Assembly: GCA_013816805.1 (NCBI GenBank)
Contig: JACDDS010000008.1
Location: forward strand, 1-64,000
Reading direction: 5' to 3'
Length of the DNA stretch: 64,000 nucleotides
Origin: Chitinophagales bacterium
Lineage (GTDB): Bacteria > Bacteroidota > Bacteroidia > Chitinophagales > UBA10324
Within the stretch, counting starts at the first letter, position 1. Each line of letters begins with the position of its first letter. Both the position numbers and the translations under genes were made by a program. The notes under the pieces were generated by a model, which saw only the letters and a program-made list of their open reading frames with translations, ran no database searches and was not told where the DNA came from. Below, piece after piece: positions 1-7,731 of the stretch.

Positions 1-275
1 GCAACCGGACTTCCTAAATAAGCATTAGGTTTTTCAGTTGAAATCCAGCTAGTGCCATTCCAAATTCCCATCATTCGAGATACCTTATCACCTGCATAGT
101 AAAAATCACCACCTACATACAACCATTTATTAACACTATCAAAAACCATGGATTTCACATCAGCACTTTGATAGGAATGTTCTGGTTGTACACCTTCACC
201 CAACGGCAGCCATGTTTGAGCATAGACGCTATTATGAAACGCTAATGCAATTAAGCAGTAAATAACATATTTCAT
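1..275 (-). CDS. Exported propeller-like protein, N-terminal part (runs off the window)
   Basis: An open minus-strand frame starts at an ATG at 275, two bases past the stop of the upstream gene, and leaves the window at base 1 without a stop. The first 20 residues are a signal peptide (MKYVIYCLIALAFHNSVYAQ). The mature part has motifs such as LYVGGDF and IWNGTSW, which recur in secreted Bacteroidota proteins built from short propeller-like repeats. About 91 residues are visible, so the full architecture and any T9SS sorting domain cannot be seen. The tight spacing suggests translation from the same mRNA as the large secreted protein upstream. Confidence 0.72.
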   Translation of the reverse strand, partial: MKYVIYCLIALAFHNSVYAQTWLPLGEGVQPEHSYQSADVKSMVFDSVNKWLYVGGDFYYAGDKVSRMMGIWNGTSWISTEKPNAYLGSPV

Positions 276-277
276 GA

Positions 278-1711
278 TTATTGAATGATAATAGGTTTTA
301 CAATAAAATCAGCATTAGCAAGACATTTTACAAAATAAATCCCCGGTTCAAGTTTTGATTTAAATTGTATATTTTCTACAACTTCTGATCCATTTAAGTA
401 GTATTCTTTTGACCACAAGATTCGCATGGAGCAATCTGACAAGGTAAATTCTACCTTTCCCTCAAACGTTTTTGTAGATTTTAGTTTTAAAGTAAAATTA
501 CCATCATTAGGATTTGGGAAAACTGAGCATATTATTCTGTTTTCCAAGCTATTATATTCAAGCGTATCGGAAGCCTCCCGGCAAATTCCCGAGTAACTTA
601 CTATATGATGGTTAGATTCAAATGAACAATCTCCAACACCGGAAAATGTTTTTTTATACCTACAAAAATATTCAGCACCAGAAAGAGGAATATCACTGTT
701 ATGATAGGTATAATTTTGATTTGTTTCTCCGCTGATTTCAACTCCATTCATAACCCATTGATAAGTATAACCACTAACAGCAGTGGCATTTAAGGTATAG
801 CTTCCAGATCCAGTACAAATTTGAAAAGCTCCGCAGTTCGTACAAAGATTAGGTTTGGATGTAACCGTAATAGTCTTTGTTGCACTTCCACAGCATCCAT
901 TTGAATTATCATGAACATTTATTGAATTCACAGTATAATTAAATGTGCCCTCAGTTTCTGGTTGTGCAATCACAGAACTACCAGTTAATGCTTGCAGCCC
1001 ACCATTCGCTGGTTCTTGCCATTGATAATATGAAGTATTCGTTCCAGAAGTAGAGGCAGTTAATTTAATACATTGACCAAGAAATATAGACCCACTTGTA
1101 GACGAAATGCTCGGAGTCGGATCGCTCCCGGTCCTATTTATTGTAATACTGGCATCATTTGTTACACCGGGACATTGTAAACTCCCGTCATCTGAAGCAA
1201 CAGTTCCATAAACTTTAAATGTACTATTACCATTTGCTAAATTACCTGTTGTAGAGTATTTAGGGTTAGTACCACTTTGTAGTAATGTTTCATTTCCTCC
1301 GTTTACTGATTTAAAGTCATAATTTCCATAATGTATAAATCCATCAGAGCCTTTTTGGTCTGCTCCTTCAGCCTGAATAGTTATTGCTTCATTACAAACG
1401 GATAATCTAGGTGGTGGAATGAAATCTATGCTTGGAATGATAGTGATATGTGCAAATGATTTAGCGGTTTTTTGGGATGACTGTTGATAAATATCTACTT
1501 CCAAAATAAATGAATCTGAAGGATAATTTGAATTTGATGGGGATAAGGTAAATGTATTCGTAGACGCACTTGAAGTTTGAGTACCTAAAGTAACAGCCGG
1601 ATATTCTGAAATATCTTTGTAAGTATATGTAATTGAACCCGGGTTTAAACCAAATGGCTCGCTAACCGACAAAACAATATCCTCGTTAGCACAAAAAGGG
1701 TGATTTACCAC
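278..1711 (-). CDS. C-terminal part of a T9SS cargo: Ig-like domains plus sorting domain, separated by a frame break
   Basis: This 477-residue frame has Ig/PKD-like cysteine-containing modules over residues 1-390 and a type A T9SS C-terminal sorting domain over about 395-477 (FPNPNDGNFTL near its start, GIYFVKC and KPIIIQ at the end). It has no signal peptide. Its only start is a GTG inside the end of the upstream 1863-residue frame, which has a signal peptide but no sorting domain. The two frames join cleanly if one base of the A5 run at 1693-1697 is removed: the protein then reads SPFCANEDIV across the joint. This is therefore most likely the tail of one protein of about 2,340 residues, split by a +1 frame break. 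A separate gene is the less likely reading. Confidence 0.8.
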   Translation of the reverse strand: MVNHPFCANEDIVLSVSEPFGLNPGSITYTYKDISEYPAVTLGTQTSSASTNTFTLSPSNSNYPSDSFILEVDIYQQSSQKTAKSFAHITIIPSIDFIPPPRLSVCNEAITIQAEGADQKGSDGFIHYGNYDFKSVNGGNETLLQSGTNPKYSTTGNLANGNSTFKVYGTVASDDGSLQCPGVTNDASITINRTGSDPTPSISSTSGSIFLGQCIKLTASTSGTNTSYYQWQEPANGGLQALTGSSVIAQPETEGTFNYTVNSINVHDNSNGCCGSATKTITVTSKPNLCTNCGAFQICTGSGSYTLNATAVSGYTYQWVMNGVEISGETNQNYTYHNSDIPLSGAEYFCRYKKTFSGVGDCSFESNHHIVSYSGICREASDTLEYNSLENRIICSVFPNPNDGNFTLKLKSTKTFEGKVEFTLSDCSMRILWSKEYYLNGSEVVENIQFKSKLEPGIYFVKCLANADFIVKPIIIQ

Positions 1712-4700
1712 TATGAGTATATTGAATGTTTACAGCTGAATTATTATCGCTTCGATCAACATACGCATCAGCTAACGTATAACAGCCGGTTGTTGAATTT
1801 ATTCCGGTTACAGTATAATTCATATAATTATAATACGAAACATCATTGTAGTTATGCTCTGATGATGAGTAGGATGTGTATTGATTAGGACGGGCATAGA
1901 CCTGTGACCCCGTAATAGTGCTGGTACCACCCGTTGATGATGTATATAAACCTAATCCAGGGCCCCACCAATAGTTAAGACCGGTCGTCTGGCTCGTTGC
2001 CTGAAGAGATACTCCAGTTCCTGCTGCAATGTCATATGTAGCTGGATCTGCAGAAACACTTGAAGTTACGTTTAAATCAGGTTTGACATTCGCAGTTACA
2101 CTACATTGCGCAGTGCTACCGTTGTCCCCCGTAACAGTTATGGTGTAAGAGCCGTTAAGAATTGGGATTAATGAAGTATTATTTCCTTCATAATTACTTA
2201 AATATATCAATGAAACGTCTCCTATAACAGGATGTGAATTAGGTATGCAATTGGGACAAGGGCTTACTAAATTCCAGGAATAGGTAGAAGCCCCTGTTGC
2301 TGAAATGTTAACTGCAGACCCAGCAAATGGGATTCCTTGTTGAAAGCCTCCTTGCATATCAATAGCCAGAGGAATCATACATCCTGGTTTTGTATCACAT
2401 TTGATGATGACGCTTGATTTTACTTGATAGATTCTAGTTATGGAATATTTGGGAATTGTAACCAAGGTTGAAAGAGAGTTGACCGTTATTGGATCAGGAT
2501 GCATTAGTGGTGGGTAATTAATGTGATCAATATCAGTACTTGTTCCTAACTTGGTTTTGCCATCTTGAGTGAAATATGCTACGTCCTTATTCCCAATAAT
2601 ATAGCAAAAAGGGTTTATATAGCTCTTTCCATTAAGCTCAGTTAAACTTATTTGTTCATAGCCATAGGCACCAGATGTCCAACCAAAATCTTTAGGAGAA
2701 ACTTCCTTAGGCTGATCACCTAAGTTTATTATAATTACTTGTTCAACATCATCTATTGAATTAGGTTTATAAAACTTCCATGAATAAAGAGCCGAATACG
2801 GAGTATTTAAAATTATATAACTATTGTCAAAATTAAGCTTTGTTGCATATGTATTTTCCCTCATAGCTTCGCCAATTAATTTTAAACAATCACCTGTGGC
2901 AGTTAACTCCCATGGTTTGGTTGTTAAGTTTGTAAAAACGTCACCAAATTTGCTAAAAGAAAACCCCTTATCATCTACGAAGAAAGCACCACTGTTTGCA
3001 TCCAAAGTACTGGTTTGTACATATACATGTTTTATAACATCAAAATCTAAATATTGAAGCGTTAATGCAGCCATGTATAGTCCATGCGCCCATGAGCCTG
3101 ATAAAGCCACCCTATCATCACTTAAATTAAATTCAGTAACCCAGGCTTCAATGCCTGCGGGAACAACTTTAAGAGATTTTGCTCTAAAATTATCGTTTAC
3201 CTGACTGAATGGCACTGAAAGAATGGTTGGTAAATTAGAAACCTGTGGGAAATATGTGTTTTGCCCACCTGGAGTAACTCCGGAAGATGGATAATTGTGA
3301 AAACTTAATGCATCCCCGGTCTGAAGATGTAAATTACTCCCCCCAGTATTTGGTAGTCCTAAAACCGCATTCCAAGTATTTTCCCTGCAAATACCTCCAT
3401 CAGTATTTATTGAAGCGCCATTGTTGTTGTCATCTTCAATACCAGGTGATGATGCCACTACGGAAACCTTCAAATTATTGAATTTAGATTCATTCGTTTT
3501 AAGAAAATGAAGATTGTCAAGATAAGTATTAGCAGTAGCTATATAACTTGTAGCATTGGGATAAGCACACCATGTTTTTTGATTACCTCCTTTGTAAAGT
3601 TCATTGCCCAATTCAACATACTTTAAATTCATATTCAGGTCACGTGCCATGTATAATTCCTTAACATCAAAATCATAGGTGGAGAATATCATGTTAAAAT
3701 GGAATAAAGCGTCGGCCTTATTAGCGTCCAGATTATATTTAATATCCGTTAATCTATCGCTAATAACTTGTGGTTTAGGTTTATATAAGTCTTCACCAAT
3801 ACAGCCAATATTTTGAGGAAGACTTACTGAAGCCTCACCTGTATTTTGATAAATGTCTGGTTCGCTATACCATCCTTTATCCCAATCCCAGTATCCGCTA
3901 CCGAAATGAAGTCGGAAAATCCGGCTGTTTAATTTAGTTATATTCGTGGCAAAGGACCAATCATTCCATCCGCCCGATCCATATCCAATTTCAGTTGAAG
4001 CATCATCCAAATGCACTGTCTTTGTATTTTCCGTATTATAACCAAGCCAGTCTTGCACTCCATCTGCATCTATGGATCTTCCTGTTCCGATAATGCTTAG
4101 AATAGATAAATAATCAGCAGGACGGATTGTAATTGCTGATATATCCAGATTTGATGCGCTTATAAGTGATGCATTTATAGAACCTTTAGATAGCAGTGAA
4201 GTGTTACCATTAAGAGTGTCACCTTTAATATTTCCTTTAACCAGATAATTTCCACCAGCATTGACAGTATGGTGAAAATTATATTTACCACTAATAATAA
4301 AAAAGACTCTTTCTGGATTATTCGTGAGGTTATTAATAAAAGCTCCCTTATTTAATACTAAAGAATCACGGATAAGAAAAATAAAATACGCATCGCTACT
4401 ACCGCTGAGGGTTAGGGTGTCATTTAAATATCCCATGCTATCTATTTTGTACACGCCGGATGAATAAAGATGCTTATTAAGATTAACATGAATAGAAGTA
4501 GCAGAGAGTTTTTTAAATCGGGAAATAACTGAATCTAAATCAGTTAATGCCGAATCAACTCCTGATGTGTTGATATAAATTCCATTTGAAGCATATACTT
4601 TGTTTGAAACAGTAGTTTTAGCCCCCACTTTCCCACTTACATTTATTGAATCAGCTAGGGTAATGCTTTGGCTCGATAAAAGTCCATAGGATGAAGTTTT

Positions 4701-7277
4701 CTTCTTAGCTGGTGGCAGTATGGTTACAACAACGTTGTCTGAAGCTGCACACCCTACGGAATCTACTACTGTAACTGAAAAATTACAGGCGGCAGAATAA
4801 GAAGTTGCGGGATTAGACACCGTTTGATTGCTTAATATATCAGAATGATTCCAATTATAGATGTAGGGTGTTTTTCCTCCCATTGCTGTAGGCAGACCAC
4901 CAATATTTAACGAACCATACCCTAAGTATAAAGTTGTATCTCTTCCTGCATTAATTGAAAGCTTTGGATAAACTTTGATAACAAGTGTGTCTTTAGAAAC
5001 ACATCCATTCGCATTTGTTACCGTAACATCGTATGAAGTAGTTATTATTGGTGAAATAACTGGATTAGCTAACCATGCAATTGTATCCATCCCTGTTTTC
5101 CAAATAGTTTTAAATCCGTTACTAACATTTTCAGCAGTTGGTCCTCCACCAATTATAATGGAGGAACCCGCACCACAAATCAATTGGTCGCTACCAGCAT
5201 GTACTACTGGAGTCTGTTTAATAGTTACTACAGAAGTATCATATGCAAGCGTATGATCAAGGTCCGTTACGGTTAAAACATACAACTGTGTAACAGAAGG
5301 TTGGGCTATGGGATTGGGAGAGGAAATAGAACTTAATGAACTATCAGGAGACCATGAATAAGTCAGTGCCCCAATCCCCCCTGTACCTGATGGATTTCCT
5401 CCTAAATATTTTGTTCCCCCTTTGCAAAAGGATGTATCTGTCCCTGCATGCGCATATAAAGAAGGAGATTTTTTACTGATTATAAAATATCCGAATATAC
5501 TTACTGGATATACATTTTGAATATTACCAGAAGAAGTTGTTCCCGACGTGGTAACCGTACCGGTATTATGCCACTTCGCTCCATCCCACCGTCCGATCTT
5601 TAAAGTAGAAAGTGTATAAATATCACAGGTGGTTGCATCCCAATAAAGAGTAAGCTTCACATTGCTACTGCCAATCATTCGCTTCGTATTCCAATACTCA
5701 CAATCACTGACATAGGTAAGTGAGTCTTTGGCACTTCCTAATGTTTGTTGTGTATTAAAGTACTCAGCTCTAAAAGCATCGGTGGTCAATGACGGTGCAG
5801 TAATGGCAATTGGTTTATACGTTGCTCCCTTCCCCACCGGAAAGGTGAAAGCACTATTCCCGATCTTTATAACTGGTCCTTTAACAAAGCTCGTGTTTGA
5901 AACACTCGTAGCCGTTGCTCCACTCCGAAGGGTTAAAACATTGGTTGTATCGGTAATAATATACCCATTGACTAAATCTAAATTATTAGAAACTGATACC
6001 GCTTTCTGCAACGTCACCTGTCCCCCACTTTTATCCACCACCATCTTATACAACTGTGGTGATGCTGCACCGTAGATATTTTGATTATTTGTACCAGTGA
6101 ATTTGAAGGTCGTATTCCCTATCGAAGTTACTGATGTATTGTTCCATTTGATATCCTTCAATATTTTCAATATGCCACCGTTAATGATACAGTCAGCACT
6201 TTGGGAAGTGACGAAGGTATCTGCCACTTGCACGGTTCCAGAAATGGTATGCACTCCTCCTAAGCCAAACATTTCAAGGTCGTAGAACTTCATGGTACCT
6301 GATGAGCTATTCTTTAAGCTGTTATTGTAGTAACACATTACCCGTGAAATTCCTTCATTCACGGTTCCTGCTATATATTCCCACATAGTGCTTCCACCCA
6401 TACCTATTCTACCCATTAAGGTTACCGTTCCGCCGGTTTTATTGAATTGTATATTGGGAAGCTTTCCGGAAATCGTGCTCCCCTGGTTGTCATTTATGGT
6501 CTGAGTACCCGTACCGTTAACGATGATGGTAACCGTTCCTCCACCTACTGAAGCTGTATTAGAACTTAAGATATTACCCGGTACTTCAATGGTTGAGCTT
6601 GTGATGGTGTTTAAAAAGAGCTGGTTGCTGCCGGATAACGTCAGCTTATGATCCACCTCAAGTGTTATATTCTTAATCGTGAACTGTGTGGTCTGGGACG
6701 GAGCAGTAAACTCAGCATCATAGAAGATATAGCGGCTGGTATTAGCTGATGAATTGACAACCGTAGTGGTATTAGATGCTTTTTTGAAAACAATTTTACC
6801 ACTGTTGTGGGTGAAGCTTCCTGTCTTTAGCGTTACATCTCCTGCTAAGGTCATGGTGCCTGAAGTACTGGTGAAAGCAGTTCCGTCAATGGTAAATGAG
6901 CTATTGCAGTTGATGGTGGCACTGCCTCCACTAAAGATCCCTCCTTTGAAGCTTCCGATATCAAAGGAGAGTGTCTTGCCGGTATTCAAAGAAACGGTGC
7001 CGGTGTACAGTGAAGTCATGGTCACCTTGGCAACGGTCATGTTTGAATCCAAGGTCGCACTGGTTACCGAACAGTTATTGAAGATGATGGTATCAATTAA
7101 GGTCGGTGGCGTAGTTGCTATTCCACCACTGCAGCTTCCAACCTGATAGTTGCCTTTAACCTTCATACTGGTCGAGGTGCCTTGTGGCTTCCAGTAGAGG
7201 TTCCGTTGTGAGTAACTATTTGATGAAATGAAAAAGAGTAGAGAAAAAAGGAGTGAGGACAGTAATAATTTTTTCAT
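1686..7277 (-). CDS. Giant secreted multidomain protein: adhesin-like repeats, PKD-like, DUF3494 ice-binding-like and GH-A-like barrel domains
   Basis: The 1863-residue protein starts with a signal peptide (1-24). Residues 25-500 are Gly/Ser/Thr-rich beta-strand repeats like those of adhesins, ending in a block around 465-600 with an FTFPVGKG motif. Residues 605-855 hold PKD/Ig-like modules. Residues 864-1045 match the DUF3494 ice-binding-like family (SGVYKIDS, YFIFLIRDSL, VFFIISG, VKGNIKGDTLNGN). Residues 1085-1500 look like a clan GH-A TIM barrel, with a strand-4 type site VELGNE (candidate acid/base E1226) and a strand-7 type site WVTEFN (candidate nucleophile E1382). Two Ig-like segments follow. 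The frame stops without a sorting domain, which lies in the next frame beyond the A5 run at 1693-1697. Domain calls are by eye; sugar specificity cannot be inferred. Confidence 0.8.
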   Translation of the reverse strand: MKKLLLSSLLFSLLFFISSNSYSQRNLYWKPQGTSTSMKVKGNYQVGSCSGGIATTPPTLIDTIIFNNCSVTSATLDSNMTVAKVTMTSLYTGTVSLNTGKTLSFDIGSFKGGIFSGGSATINCNSSFTIDGTAFTSTSGTMTLAGDVTLKTGSFTHNSGKIVFKKASNTTTVVNSSANTSRYIFYDAEFTAPSQTTQFTIKNITLEVDHKLTLSGSNQLFLNTITSSTIEVPGNILSSNTASVGGGTVTIIVNGTGTQTINDNQGSTISGKLPNIQFNKTGGTVTLMGRIGMGGSTMWEYIAGTVNEGISRVMCYYNNSLKNSSSGTMKFYDLEMFGLGGVHTISGTVQVADTFVTSQSADCIINGGILKILKDIKWNNTSVTSIGNTTFKFTGTNNQNIYGAASPQLYKMVVDKSGGQVTLQKAVSVSNNLDLVNGYIITDTTNVLTLRSGATATSVSNTSFVKGPVIKIGNSAFTFPVGKGATYKPIAITAPSLTTDAFRAEYFNTQQTLGSAKDSLTYVSDCEYWNTKRMIGSSNVKLTLYWDATTCDIYTLSTLKIGRWDGAKWHNTGTVTTSGTTSSGNIQNVYPVSIFGYFIISKKSPSLYAHAGTDTSFCKGGTKYLGGNPSGTGGIGALTYSWSPDSSLSSISSPNPIAQPSVTQLYVLTVTDLDHTLAYDTSVVTIKQTPVVHAGSDQLICGAGSSIIIGGGPTAENVSNGFKTIWKTGMDTIAWLANPVISPIITTSYDVTVTNANGCVSKDTLVIKVYPKLSINAGRDTTLYLGYGSLNIGGLPTAMGGKTPYIYNWNHSDILSNQTVSNPATSYSAACNFSVTVVDSVGCAASDNVVVTILPPAKKKTSSYGLLSSQSITLADSINVSGKVGAKTTVSNKVYASNGIYINTSGVDSALTDLDSVISRFKKLSATSIHVNLNKHLYSSGVYKIDSMGYLNDTLTLSGSSDAYFIFLIRDSLVLNKGAFINNLTNNPERVFFIISGKYNFHHTVNAGGNYLVKGNIKGDTLNGNTSLLSKGSINASLISASNLDISAITIRPADYLSILSIIGTGRSIDADGVQDWLGYNTENTKTVHLDDASTEIGYGSGGWNDWSFATNITKLNSRIFRLHFGSGYWDWDKGWYSEPDIYQNTGEASVSLPQNIGCIGEDLYKPKPQVISDRLTDIKYNLDANKADALFHFNMIFSTYDFDVKELYMARDLNMNLKYVELGNELYKGGNQKTWCAYPNATSYIATANTYLDNLHFLKTNESKFNNLKVSVVASSPGIEDDNNNGASINTDGGICRENTWNAVLGLPNTGGSNLHLQTGDALSFHNYPSSGVTPGGQNTYFPQVSNLPTILSVPFSQVNDNFRAKSLKVVPAGIEAWVTEFNLSDDRVALSGSWAHGLYMAALTLQYLDFDVIKHVYVQTSTLDANSGAFFVDDKGFSFSKFGDVFTNLTTKPWELTATGDCLKLIGEAMRENTYATKLNFDNSYIILNTPYSALYSWKFYKPNSIDDVEQVIIINLGDQPKEVSPKDFGWTSGAYGYEQISLTELNGKSYINPFCYIIGNKDVAYFTQDGKTKLGTSTDIDHINYPPLMHPDPITVNSLSTLVTIPKYSITRIYQVKSSVIIKCDTKPGCMIPLAIDMQGGFQQGIPFAGSAVNISATGASTYSWNLVSPCPNCIPNSHPVIGDVSLIYLSNYEGNNTSLIPILNGSYTITVTGDNGSTAQCSVTANVKPDLNVTSSVSADPATYDIAAGTGVSLQATSQTTGLNYWWGPGLGLYTSSTGGTSTITGSQVYARPNQYTSYSSSEHNYNDVSYYNYMNYTVTGINSTTGCYTLADAYVDRSDNNSAVNIQYTHSGKSPFLC
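1693..1697. other. Homopolymer frame break splitting the giant T9SS cargo
   Basis: A run of five A on the plus strand (T5 in the coding sense) sits where the 1863-residue frame turns into its terminal SPFLC. Taking out one base continues the reading into the downstream frame (SPFCANEDIV). The upstream part has the signal peptide and the downstream part has the sorting domain, which supports a single ancestral gene. Sequencing error, true mutation and frameshifting cannot be told apart here. Confidence 0.75.
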
Positions 7278-7333
7278 GTAAGTGAATCAGGTTGAGAATA
7301 GTGAGAATACGGAAATTGATTAGGCGCAGTGAG

Positions 7334-7356
7334 GTGTGGACGTATCTATTCCACAC
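7334..7356. other. Inverted repeat between the small exported protein and the giant cargo gene
   Basis: Perfect 7-bp arms GTGTGGA and TCCACAC enclose a 9-base loop. No T-run follows on the minus strand, so it is not a standard intrinsic terminator. It could be an mRNA hairpin in the intercistronic gap or an operator for the gene starting at 7277. Confidence 0.4.
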
Positions 7357-7386
7357 TACATTAAAAGGTAATGCGATATTGTTTCC

Positions 7387-7731
7387 TTAGAAGTACGATG
7401 CTTTGTACTCCATCTCTTCGACGGTAGTTGCTTCAGTGGTTAGAAGAAGGTCGAGGTAATAGTCACCATGAGAAAAGGTTCCAAGTGGCAGCACAAGCAT
7501 GTTATCTGCTTCACTTAGGTTGGTTCCTAAAGTGAAGGTTTGATTCGATAGGTCACTGCTGTCGGGAGCTGAGCCGATGAGTATTTGTACCGATTGTACT
7601 GGAAGGCTGTCTGAGAGAAATACAGTGAGGTTACCAGAAGTCCAGTCAATGGAACTATCTAAGATTTTTGTTTGAGCCTTTGTAACAAGCATAGAAGAGA
7701 GAAGCACACAGAGTGTGGAGAAAAATTTCAT
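7387..7731 (-). CDS. Small exported protein of unknown function
   Basis: A 114-residue protein with a clear signal peptide (residues 1-19, ending VTKAQ). The mature part of about 95 residues is rich in Ser, Thr, Leu and Asp, has no cysteine, and its alternating hydrophobic pattern suggests one beta-sandwich unit. No sorting domain or catalytic motif is visible. It lies 109 bases upstream of the giant cargo gene in the same orientation, with a hairpin between them, so it may share its transcript. Function is unknown. Confidence 0.65.
   Translation of the reverse strand: MKFFSTLCVLLSSMLVTKAQTKILDSSIDWTSGNLTVFLSDSLPVQSVQILIGSAPDSSDLSNQTFTLGTNLSEADNMLVLPLGTFSHGDYYLDLLLTTEATTVEEMEYKASYF

What the first reader, a model, noticed from the sequence alone, without database searches (positions are those of the whole stretch)
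1686..1711. Giant secreted protein is split from its T9SS sorting domain by one base
The 1863-residue frame has a signal peptide but no sorting domain. The following 477-residue frame has a sorting domain but no signal peptide and starts with a GTG inside the first. Removing one base of the A5 run at 1693-1697 merges them (SPFCANEDIV). Translation gives the frames directly; T9SS cargos normally carry both ends, which is established knowledge. If real, the protein is not secreted in this strain.
Basis: partly seen in the sequence, partly recalled or inferred. Interest (0 to 1): 0.6.

Follow-up and report, generated by a model that had tools for sequence, protein, structure and literature searches.

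The report
Frameshifted giant secreted hydrolase-like gene
A very long gene for a secreted, probably sugar-cutting protein of a soil- or water-type bacterium is split from its export tag by a one-base frame slip; it belongs to a multi-copy gene family with several damaged copies, so it is most likely an ordinary recent pseudogene, or else a sequencing slip.

Summary
On the minus strand a 1863-codon frame with a signal peptide ends at 1686; a 477-codon frame with the T9SS sorting domain overlaps it by 26 nt at a T5 run. Eight of eight homologues examined at this place read through it in one frame, so this is one gene with a frame break, not two genes.

The interpretation needs two additions. 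First, it is not a lone case. The genome holds six copies of the family: three of the five long ones carry one frame break each, at three unrelated sites; a sixth is a 3' remnant beside an IS200-like transposase; two are intact. A relative's copies carry in-frame stops. About 510 N-terminal residues are homogenised between copies, the rest is old, so copies recombine and are redundant. Second, sequencing error stays open: a frame scan of 1.11 Mb of this genome gave 11 other probable breaks, one in its only malic-enzyme gene.

The domain before the break is predicted to be a glycoside-hydrolase-like TIM barrel (nearest folds GH79, GH51, GH30) with both presumed catalytic glutamates kept. Most likely: a recently frameshifted, redundant T9SS cargo. 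I found no sign of programmed frameshifting or phase switching.

The parts
1686..7277 (-). Frame 1 of the giant gene (1863 codons): signal peptide, shared N-terminal half, glycoside-hydrolase-like domain; ends TAA at 1686-1688
7206..7277 (-). Presumed signal peptide (first 24 residues)
   Evidence: read by eye; no predictor run
5748..7277 (-). N-terminal ~510 residues homogenised between paralogues
2178..4049 (-). Glycoside-hydrolase-like TIM-barrel region plus following beta region, residues 1077-1700; invariant NE at residues 1225-1226 and E at 1382
   Evidence: alignment; weak AlphaFold2 model; fold matches
1693..1697 (-). T5 run (A5 on the + strand) at which the reading frame changes
278..1711 (-). 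Frame 2 (477 codons from a GTG; frame open from 1729): C-terminal beta-type region and T9SS tail
284..523 (-). T9SS type A sorting domain (Por_Secre_tail)
7387..7731 (-). Small upstream gene (114 aa) of the repeated cassette
   Evidence: similar genes before the giant gene in the four other long copies
3..275 (-). Start of the downstream gene of the cassette, cut by the contig end (window base 1 is contig C8 base 1)
   Evidence: similar downstream gene after three other copies by eye

Best explanation
A single giant T9SS cargo gene (signal peptide, repeated beta domains, glycoside-hydrolase-like domain, T9SS tail) has suffered a recent one-base frameshift at or beside a T5 run. Translation stops two codons later. 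The first 1863 residues, catalytic domain included, should still be exported to the periplasm by Sec but lack the tail that the T9SS translocon recognises; the tail fragment has no signal peptide and no convincing start. The copy is therefore probably a pseudogene as far as the cell surface is concerned. It persists because the genome carries several recombining paralogues, two of them intact. Shown: the frame break, the homology across it, the other damaged copies, the homogenised N-terminal half. Inferred: that the change is biological, recent, and that the product stays inside.
For: Homologues: C1a, C1b and the C3 remnant in this genome, G008 (1 copy), G001 (2 copies) and G004 (2 copies) are each open in one frame over this place, 8 of 8; the cysteine right after the break is kept in seven of them, the C3 remnant lacks it. 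Family decay: 3 of 5 long copies in this genome carry one frame break (C8 here; C1b near residue 1093; C21 near residue 293), sites and base runs all different; the sixth copy (C3) is a 3' remnant next to a multi-copy IS200-like transposase, and no match to its residues 1-590 besides the five long copies appears; G004 copies carry in-frame TGA or TAA codons. Enrichment: by one frame scan, 3 breaks in 34 kb of family coding sequence against 11 in 927 kb elsewhere; expected 0.40, Poisson P(3 or more) 0.008; leaving out the gene I was handed, 2 against 0.32 expected, P 0.04. Recent: both frames keep coding-type composition up to the joint and neither has a further stop. Redundancy: N-terminal dS 0.58-1.07 between copies, synonymous sites near or past saturation downstream. 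Established knowledge: T9SS cargos need a Sec signal peptide and a C-terminal domain (passages of PMC10202324).
Against: No reads. The genome is a 31-contig draft with 11 other probable frame breaks in 1.11 Mb scanned, including its only malic-enzyme gene, split inside the PTA domain; that many could mean residual errors. The break lies 1.7 kb from a contig end. The enrichment is modest (binomial 2 of 13 without the handed gene: 0.051) and two of the contigs scanned were chosen because they hold family members.
Confidence: 0.57

Rival explanations
1. The extra base is a sequencing or assembly error; the cell has one intact 2340-residue cargo.
For: Draft assembly; 11 other probable breaks in 1.11 Mb (scan sensitivity 52 of 80 simulated single-base indels, so the true number may be higher); the only malic-enzyme gene is among them; contig end 1.7 kb away; the gene is otherwise in good order.
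Against: Breaks cluster in this family; breaks are not enriched in runs of five or more, 4 of 13 break regions against 5.5 expected, so no homopolymer-error signature; damage of other kinds (truncation at a transposase; in-frame stops in a relative) also hits the family.
Confidence: 0.33
2. Expression is recoded: programmed frameshifting, transcript slippage, or reversible phase variation at the T5 run joins or switches the two frames.
For: Both frames stay open and in good coding shape; three copies are split in ways that could in principle be reversible; copies recombine.
Against: The run is short and common: 27% of random 44-nt coding windows here hold a run of five or more. The site is not conserved in the paralogues, and the three breaks sit in different domains and different base contexts. 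No test of expression was possible.
Confidence: 0.06
3. Two separate genes that happen to overlap.
For: A GTG in frame 2 lies 26 nt before the end of frame 1.
Against: 8 of 8 homologues are continuous here; the first ATG in frame 2 is 934 nt beyond the stop; a T9SS tail without a signal peptide has no known route.
Confidence: 0.03

Closest known systems
T9SS type A cargo proteins (TIGR04183 / PF18962 Por_Secre_tail)
   Same: Signal peptide at one end and type A sorting domain at the other, counted over both frames; paralogue C1a has both on one frame.
   Different: Here the two ends lie in different frames, so no single product carries both.
Glycoside hydrolases of clan A type (GH79 beta-glucuronidase/heparanase, GH51, GH30)
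   Same: Predicted TIM barrel; VIA-align Z 20.5 to 5bwi and 19.9 to 8b0d (GH79 enzymes), 19.4 to 6d25 (GH51); invariant NE and E at barrel positions in 7 of 7 sequences.
   Different: No Pfam or NCBIfam glycoside-hydrolase model and no PDB sequence match; 11-14% identity; the model is weak (mean pLDDT 52.5); no activity known.
Ordinary frameshifted pseudogenes in redundant paralogous families
   Same: Single-base break, otherwise good frames, intact paralogues in the same genome.
   Different: Nothing found that sets it apart, except the number of damaged copies.

Membership tests
T9SS type A cargo (as one protein) | C-terminal type A sorting domain | tested here: met
   In frame 2 only, at the cut-off
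T9SS type A cargo (as one protein) | Sec signal peptide on the same polypeptide | tested here: not met
   Signal-like N-terminus is in frame 1 only (by eye); frame 2 has none
Glycoside hydrolase family GH79, GH51 or GH30 | Sequence match to the family | tested here: not met
   No Pfam, NCBIfam or PDB sequence match
Glycoside hydrolase family GH79, GH51 or GH30 | TIM-barrel fold | tested here: inconclusive
   Strong fold matches (Foldseek E 8.6e-12, VIA Z up to 20.5) but to a low-confidence model
Glycoside hydrolase family GH79, GH51 or GH30 | Two catalytic glutamates, the first after an asparagine | tested here: inconclusive
   N149, E150 and E306 of the segment invariant in 7 rows; assignment as catalytic is recalled, not superposed
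Homopolymer phase-variable gene | Long repeat tract with length variation between cells | tested here: not met
   Only five bases; variation between cells not testable here
Programmed frameshift gene | Slippery site conserved in homologues that also have two frames | tested here: not met
   Homologues have one frame here and other sequence

The most novel reading that the evidence does not exclude
The family is a recombining reservoir: six giant surface hydrolase copies share an N-terminal half that is exchanged between copies, and frame-broken copies act as silent donors from which intact surface variants are rebuilt. The C21 break (nt 878 of its gene) lies about 80 nt before a sharp recombination border (nt 957, interval 949-974 against C8), which fits exchange through broken copies.
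Probability: 0.07. Interest if true: 0.6.

Novelty: new member of a known kind. Interest (0 to 1): 0.22.

Why it matters
If the break is real, this strain has lost surface display of one giant hydrolase-like protein while keeping two intact relatives, a small example of decay in a multi-copy secreted family. If it is an error, the annotation should be one gene. Either way a user of this genome should not treat 278-1711 and 1686-7277 as two genes. The mosaic between paralogues is the part worth a specialist's look.

Tried and rejected
Two-gene reading: rejected by the homologues. Programmed frameshift and phase variation: not supported (site not conserved, short run). Homopolymer-error signature as an explanation of all breaks: not seen, 4 of 13 regions with a run of five or more against 5.5 expected (the later-found C4:112945 is not in that count). 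Recombination border as the cause of the C8 break: not testable, because synonymous sites are near or past saturation there; the C21 break is close to a border but not on it. Selection tests on the tail were useless for the same reason.

Led nowhere: genome-contig scan with the N-terminal alignment gave 49 pattern matches and no relative; PDB sequence search gave none; family search with a mistyped accession (repeated rightly). Paper searches: 'type IX secretion' + 'frameshift' + 'pseudogene' gave 2 papers, listing only; 'type IX secretion'/'phase variation'/'homopolymer' gave 383 with two of the terms, 10 listed; T9SS tail terms gave 9, listing only; passages were read in PMC10202324 and PMC2831843. 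None of these listings showed a report of this family; that is no proof of absence.

Dropped before counts: in the frame scan I dropped by eye the calls that looked like ordinary neighbouring or overlapping genes (5 of 11 events; most of 27 rows; C4:127020). Of the 11 kept background breaks, 7 were looked at with Pfam: in 2 a single domain is split across the break (integrase, malic enzyme), in 2 the same repeat family lies on both sides (a sensor kinase and a TPR kinase), 3 were not decided by Pfam.

Full report
What is there. The minus strand of the window's first 7.7 kb carries a cassette of three genes: a small gene (7387-7731), the giant gene, and a third gene cut off by the contig end (3-275; window base 1 is contig base 1). 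The giant gene is split: 1863 codons (1686-7277) and 477 codons (278-1711), in two frames that overlap by 26 nt from the GTG, or 44 nt counted stop to stop. Pfam and NCBIfam find the T9SS sorting domain in the second frame only.

One gene, not two. Searching the window's own genome (G000, 3.57 Mb, 31 contigs, 100% complete by the tool's figure) shows an intact paralogue with a 2341-codon open frame at C1:392407-399342 (65% identity to frame 1, 35% to frame 2). At the joint the paralogues and relatives run straight through: C1a, C1b and the C3 remnant in this genome, two copies each in G001 and G004, one in G008, 8 of 8 examined. Frame 1 aligns up to SPF and frame 2 takes over at the following conserved cysteine (the C3 remnant lacks that cysteine). 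By equal contig lengths G008, G001 and G004 are the MAGs Chitinophagales SKYG18, SKYG5 and CAN_BIN04. In the order, 7 of 396 genomes held the hydrolase-like domain at E 1e-30, so the family is rare.

A damaged family. Five long copies (C8, C1a, C1b, C7, C21) and one 3' remnant (C3) are present. C1a and C7 are intact. C1b is broken near residue 1093 at AAAACCCC, C21 near residue 293 where it has one G fewer than C8, and a gap of one base against all four other copies. The C3 remnant begins about residue 1745 beside sequence that has seven matches in the genome, many at contig ends, and in its C19 copy codes for an IS200-like transposase (PF01797, E 3.3e-6). C7 and C21 share the N-terminal half with the others but have a more distant C-terminal half (33% over residues 863-1565 or 863-1684). 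In G004, copies carry TGA or TAA codons in frame.

Homogenised halves. Over residues 1-600 the copies differ by dS 0.64-1.07 in six pairs (0.58 for C8 and C21 over residues 1-293), whereas synonymous sites in the hydrolase-like domain and tails are near or past saturation (profiles). C7 changes from close to distant against C8, C1a and C1b at nt 1525-1526 in all three pairs. C21 changes at about nt 957 against C8 (2dLL 83.5; interval 949-974) and at nt 901-1009 against the other three when the first 180 nt are left out; the shuffle control for C21 against C7 reached 17.8 at most in 200 runs against 32.9 observed. So the copies exchange or convert their N-terminal halves.

Error or mutation? 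I built a coding-frame model of this genome and scanned C1, C8, C21, C7:1-60000, C2:1-200000 and C4:1-200000 (1.11 Mb, 961 kb coding). Judged by eye, 11 breaks lie outside the family: C1:175143 (S9 peptidase, at an A9 run), C1:240570, C1:327920 (sensor kinase), C1:374786 (integrase), C8:74254, C2:39722 (malic enzyme), C2:81864, C4:70635 (TPR kinase), C4:110285, C4:112945, C4:134274. Four of the 11 lie in genes whose second frame has a sorting domain. The scan found 52 of 80 simulated single-base indels and all three family breaks (the C8 one only by the second criterion). Three breaks in 34 kb of family sequence against 11 in 927 kb gives Poisson P 0.008; without the gene I was handed 0.04, or 0.051 by the binomial. 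Break regions are not rich in runs of five or more (4 of 13 against 5.5 expected). The malic-enzyme gene is the only one in the genome and is split inside its PTA domain, which is hard to reconcile with strong selection and keeps error in play. I weigh real mutation about 57%, error about 33%.

What the protein would do. Residues 1077-1700 fold, in a weak model (mean pLDDT 52.5, pTM 0.63), as a TIM barrel whose nearest solved structures are GH79 glucuronidase and heparanase, GH51 and GH30 enzymes (Foldseek E from 8.6e-12; VIA-align Z 18-20.5, rmsd 3.5-4.6 over 328-399 residues). Asparagine-glutamate at 1225-1226 and glutamate 1382 are invariant in seven sequences, as expected for acid/base and nucleophile in such enzymes (recalled). 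Sequence libraries give no name. T9SS cargos pass Sec by a signal peptide and are recognised by the C-terminal domain (passages of PMC10202324). The split product should therefore reach the periplasm and stop there. That step is inference.

Verdict. A confirmed frame break in a redundant, recombining, partly decayed family of giant T9SS cargos: ordinary in kind.

Noticed in passing
G000: C8 (window 1-7731), C1:392407-399342, C1:404491-411431, C7:1753-8361, C21:2007-8527, C3 end: Paralogous giant genes share a homogenised N-terminal ~510 residues over old, divergent C-terminal halves; sharp borders at nt ~957 (C21) and ~1525 (C7 against the others).
   Followed up: partly
L058 (G000:C1:175143): An S9 peptidase gene is split at an A9 run, the only long homopolymer among the breaks seen; the best candidate for slippage or error.
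   Followed up: partly
L110 (G000:C2:39722): The genome's only malic-enzyme gene is split inside its PTA domain.
   Followed up: partly
L042, C3 contig end; also ends of C23, C19, C5, C27: Multi-copy IS200-like (Y1_Tnp) element at contig ends; one copy truncates the sixth family member.
   Followed up: partly
window 1689-7277, residues about 863-1070: A region that by eye resembles an ice-binding-type (DUF3494) domain; Pfam gave only a weak PapG_N hit below cut-off.
   Followed up: no
G000 whole genome: 150 matches to Por_Secre_tail were scored of 311 candidates, a large T9SS cargo set for a 3.57 Mb genome.
   Followed up: no
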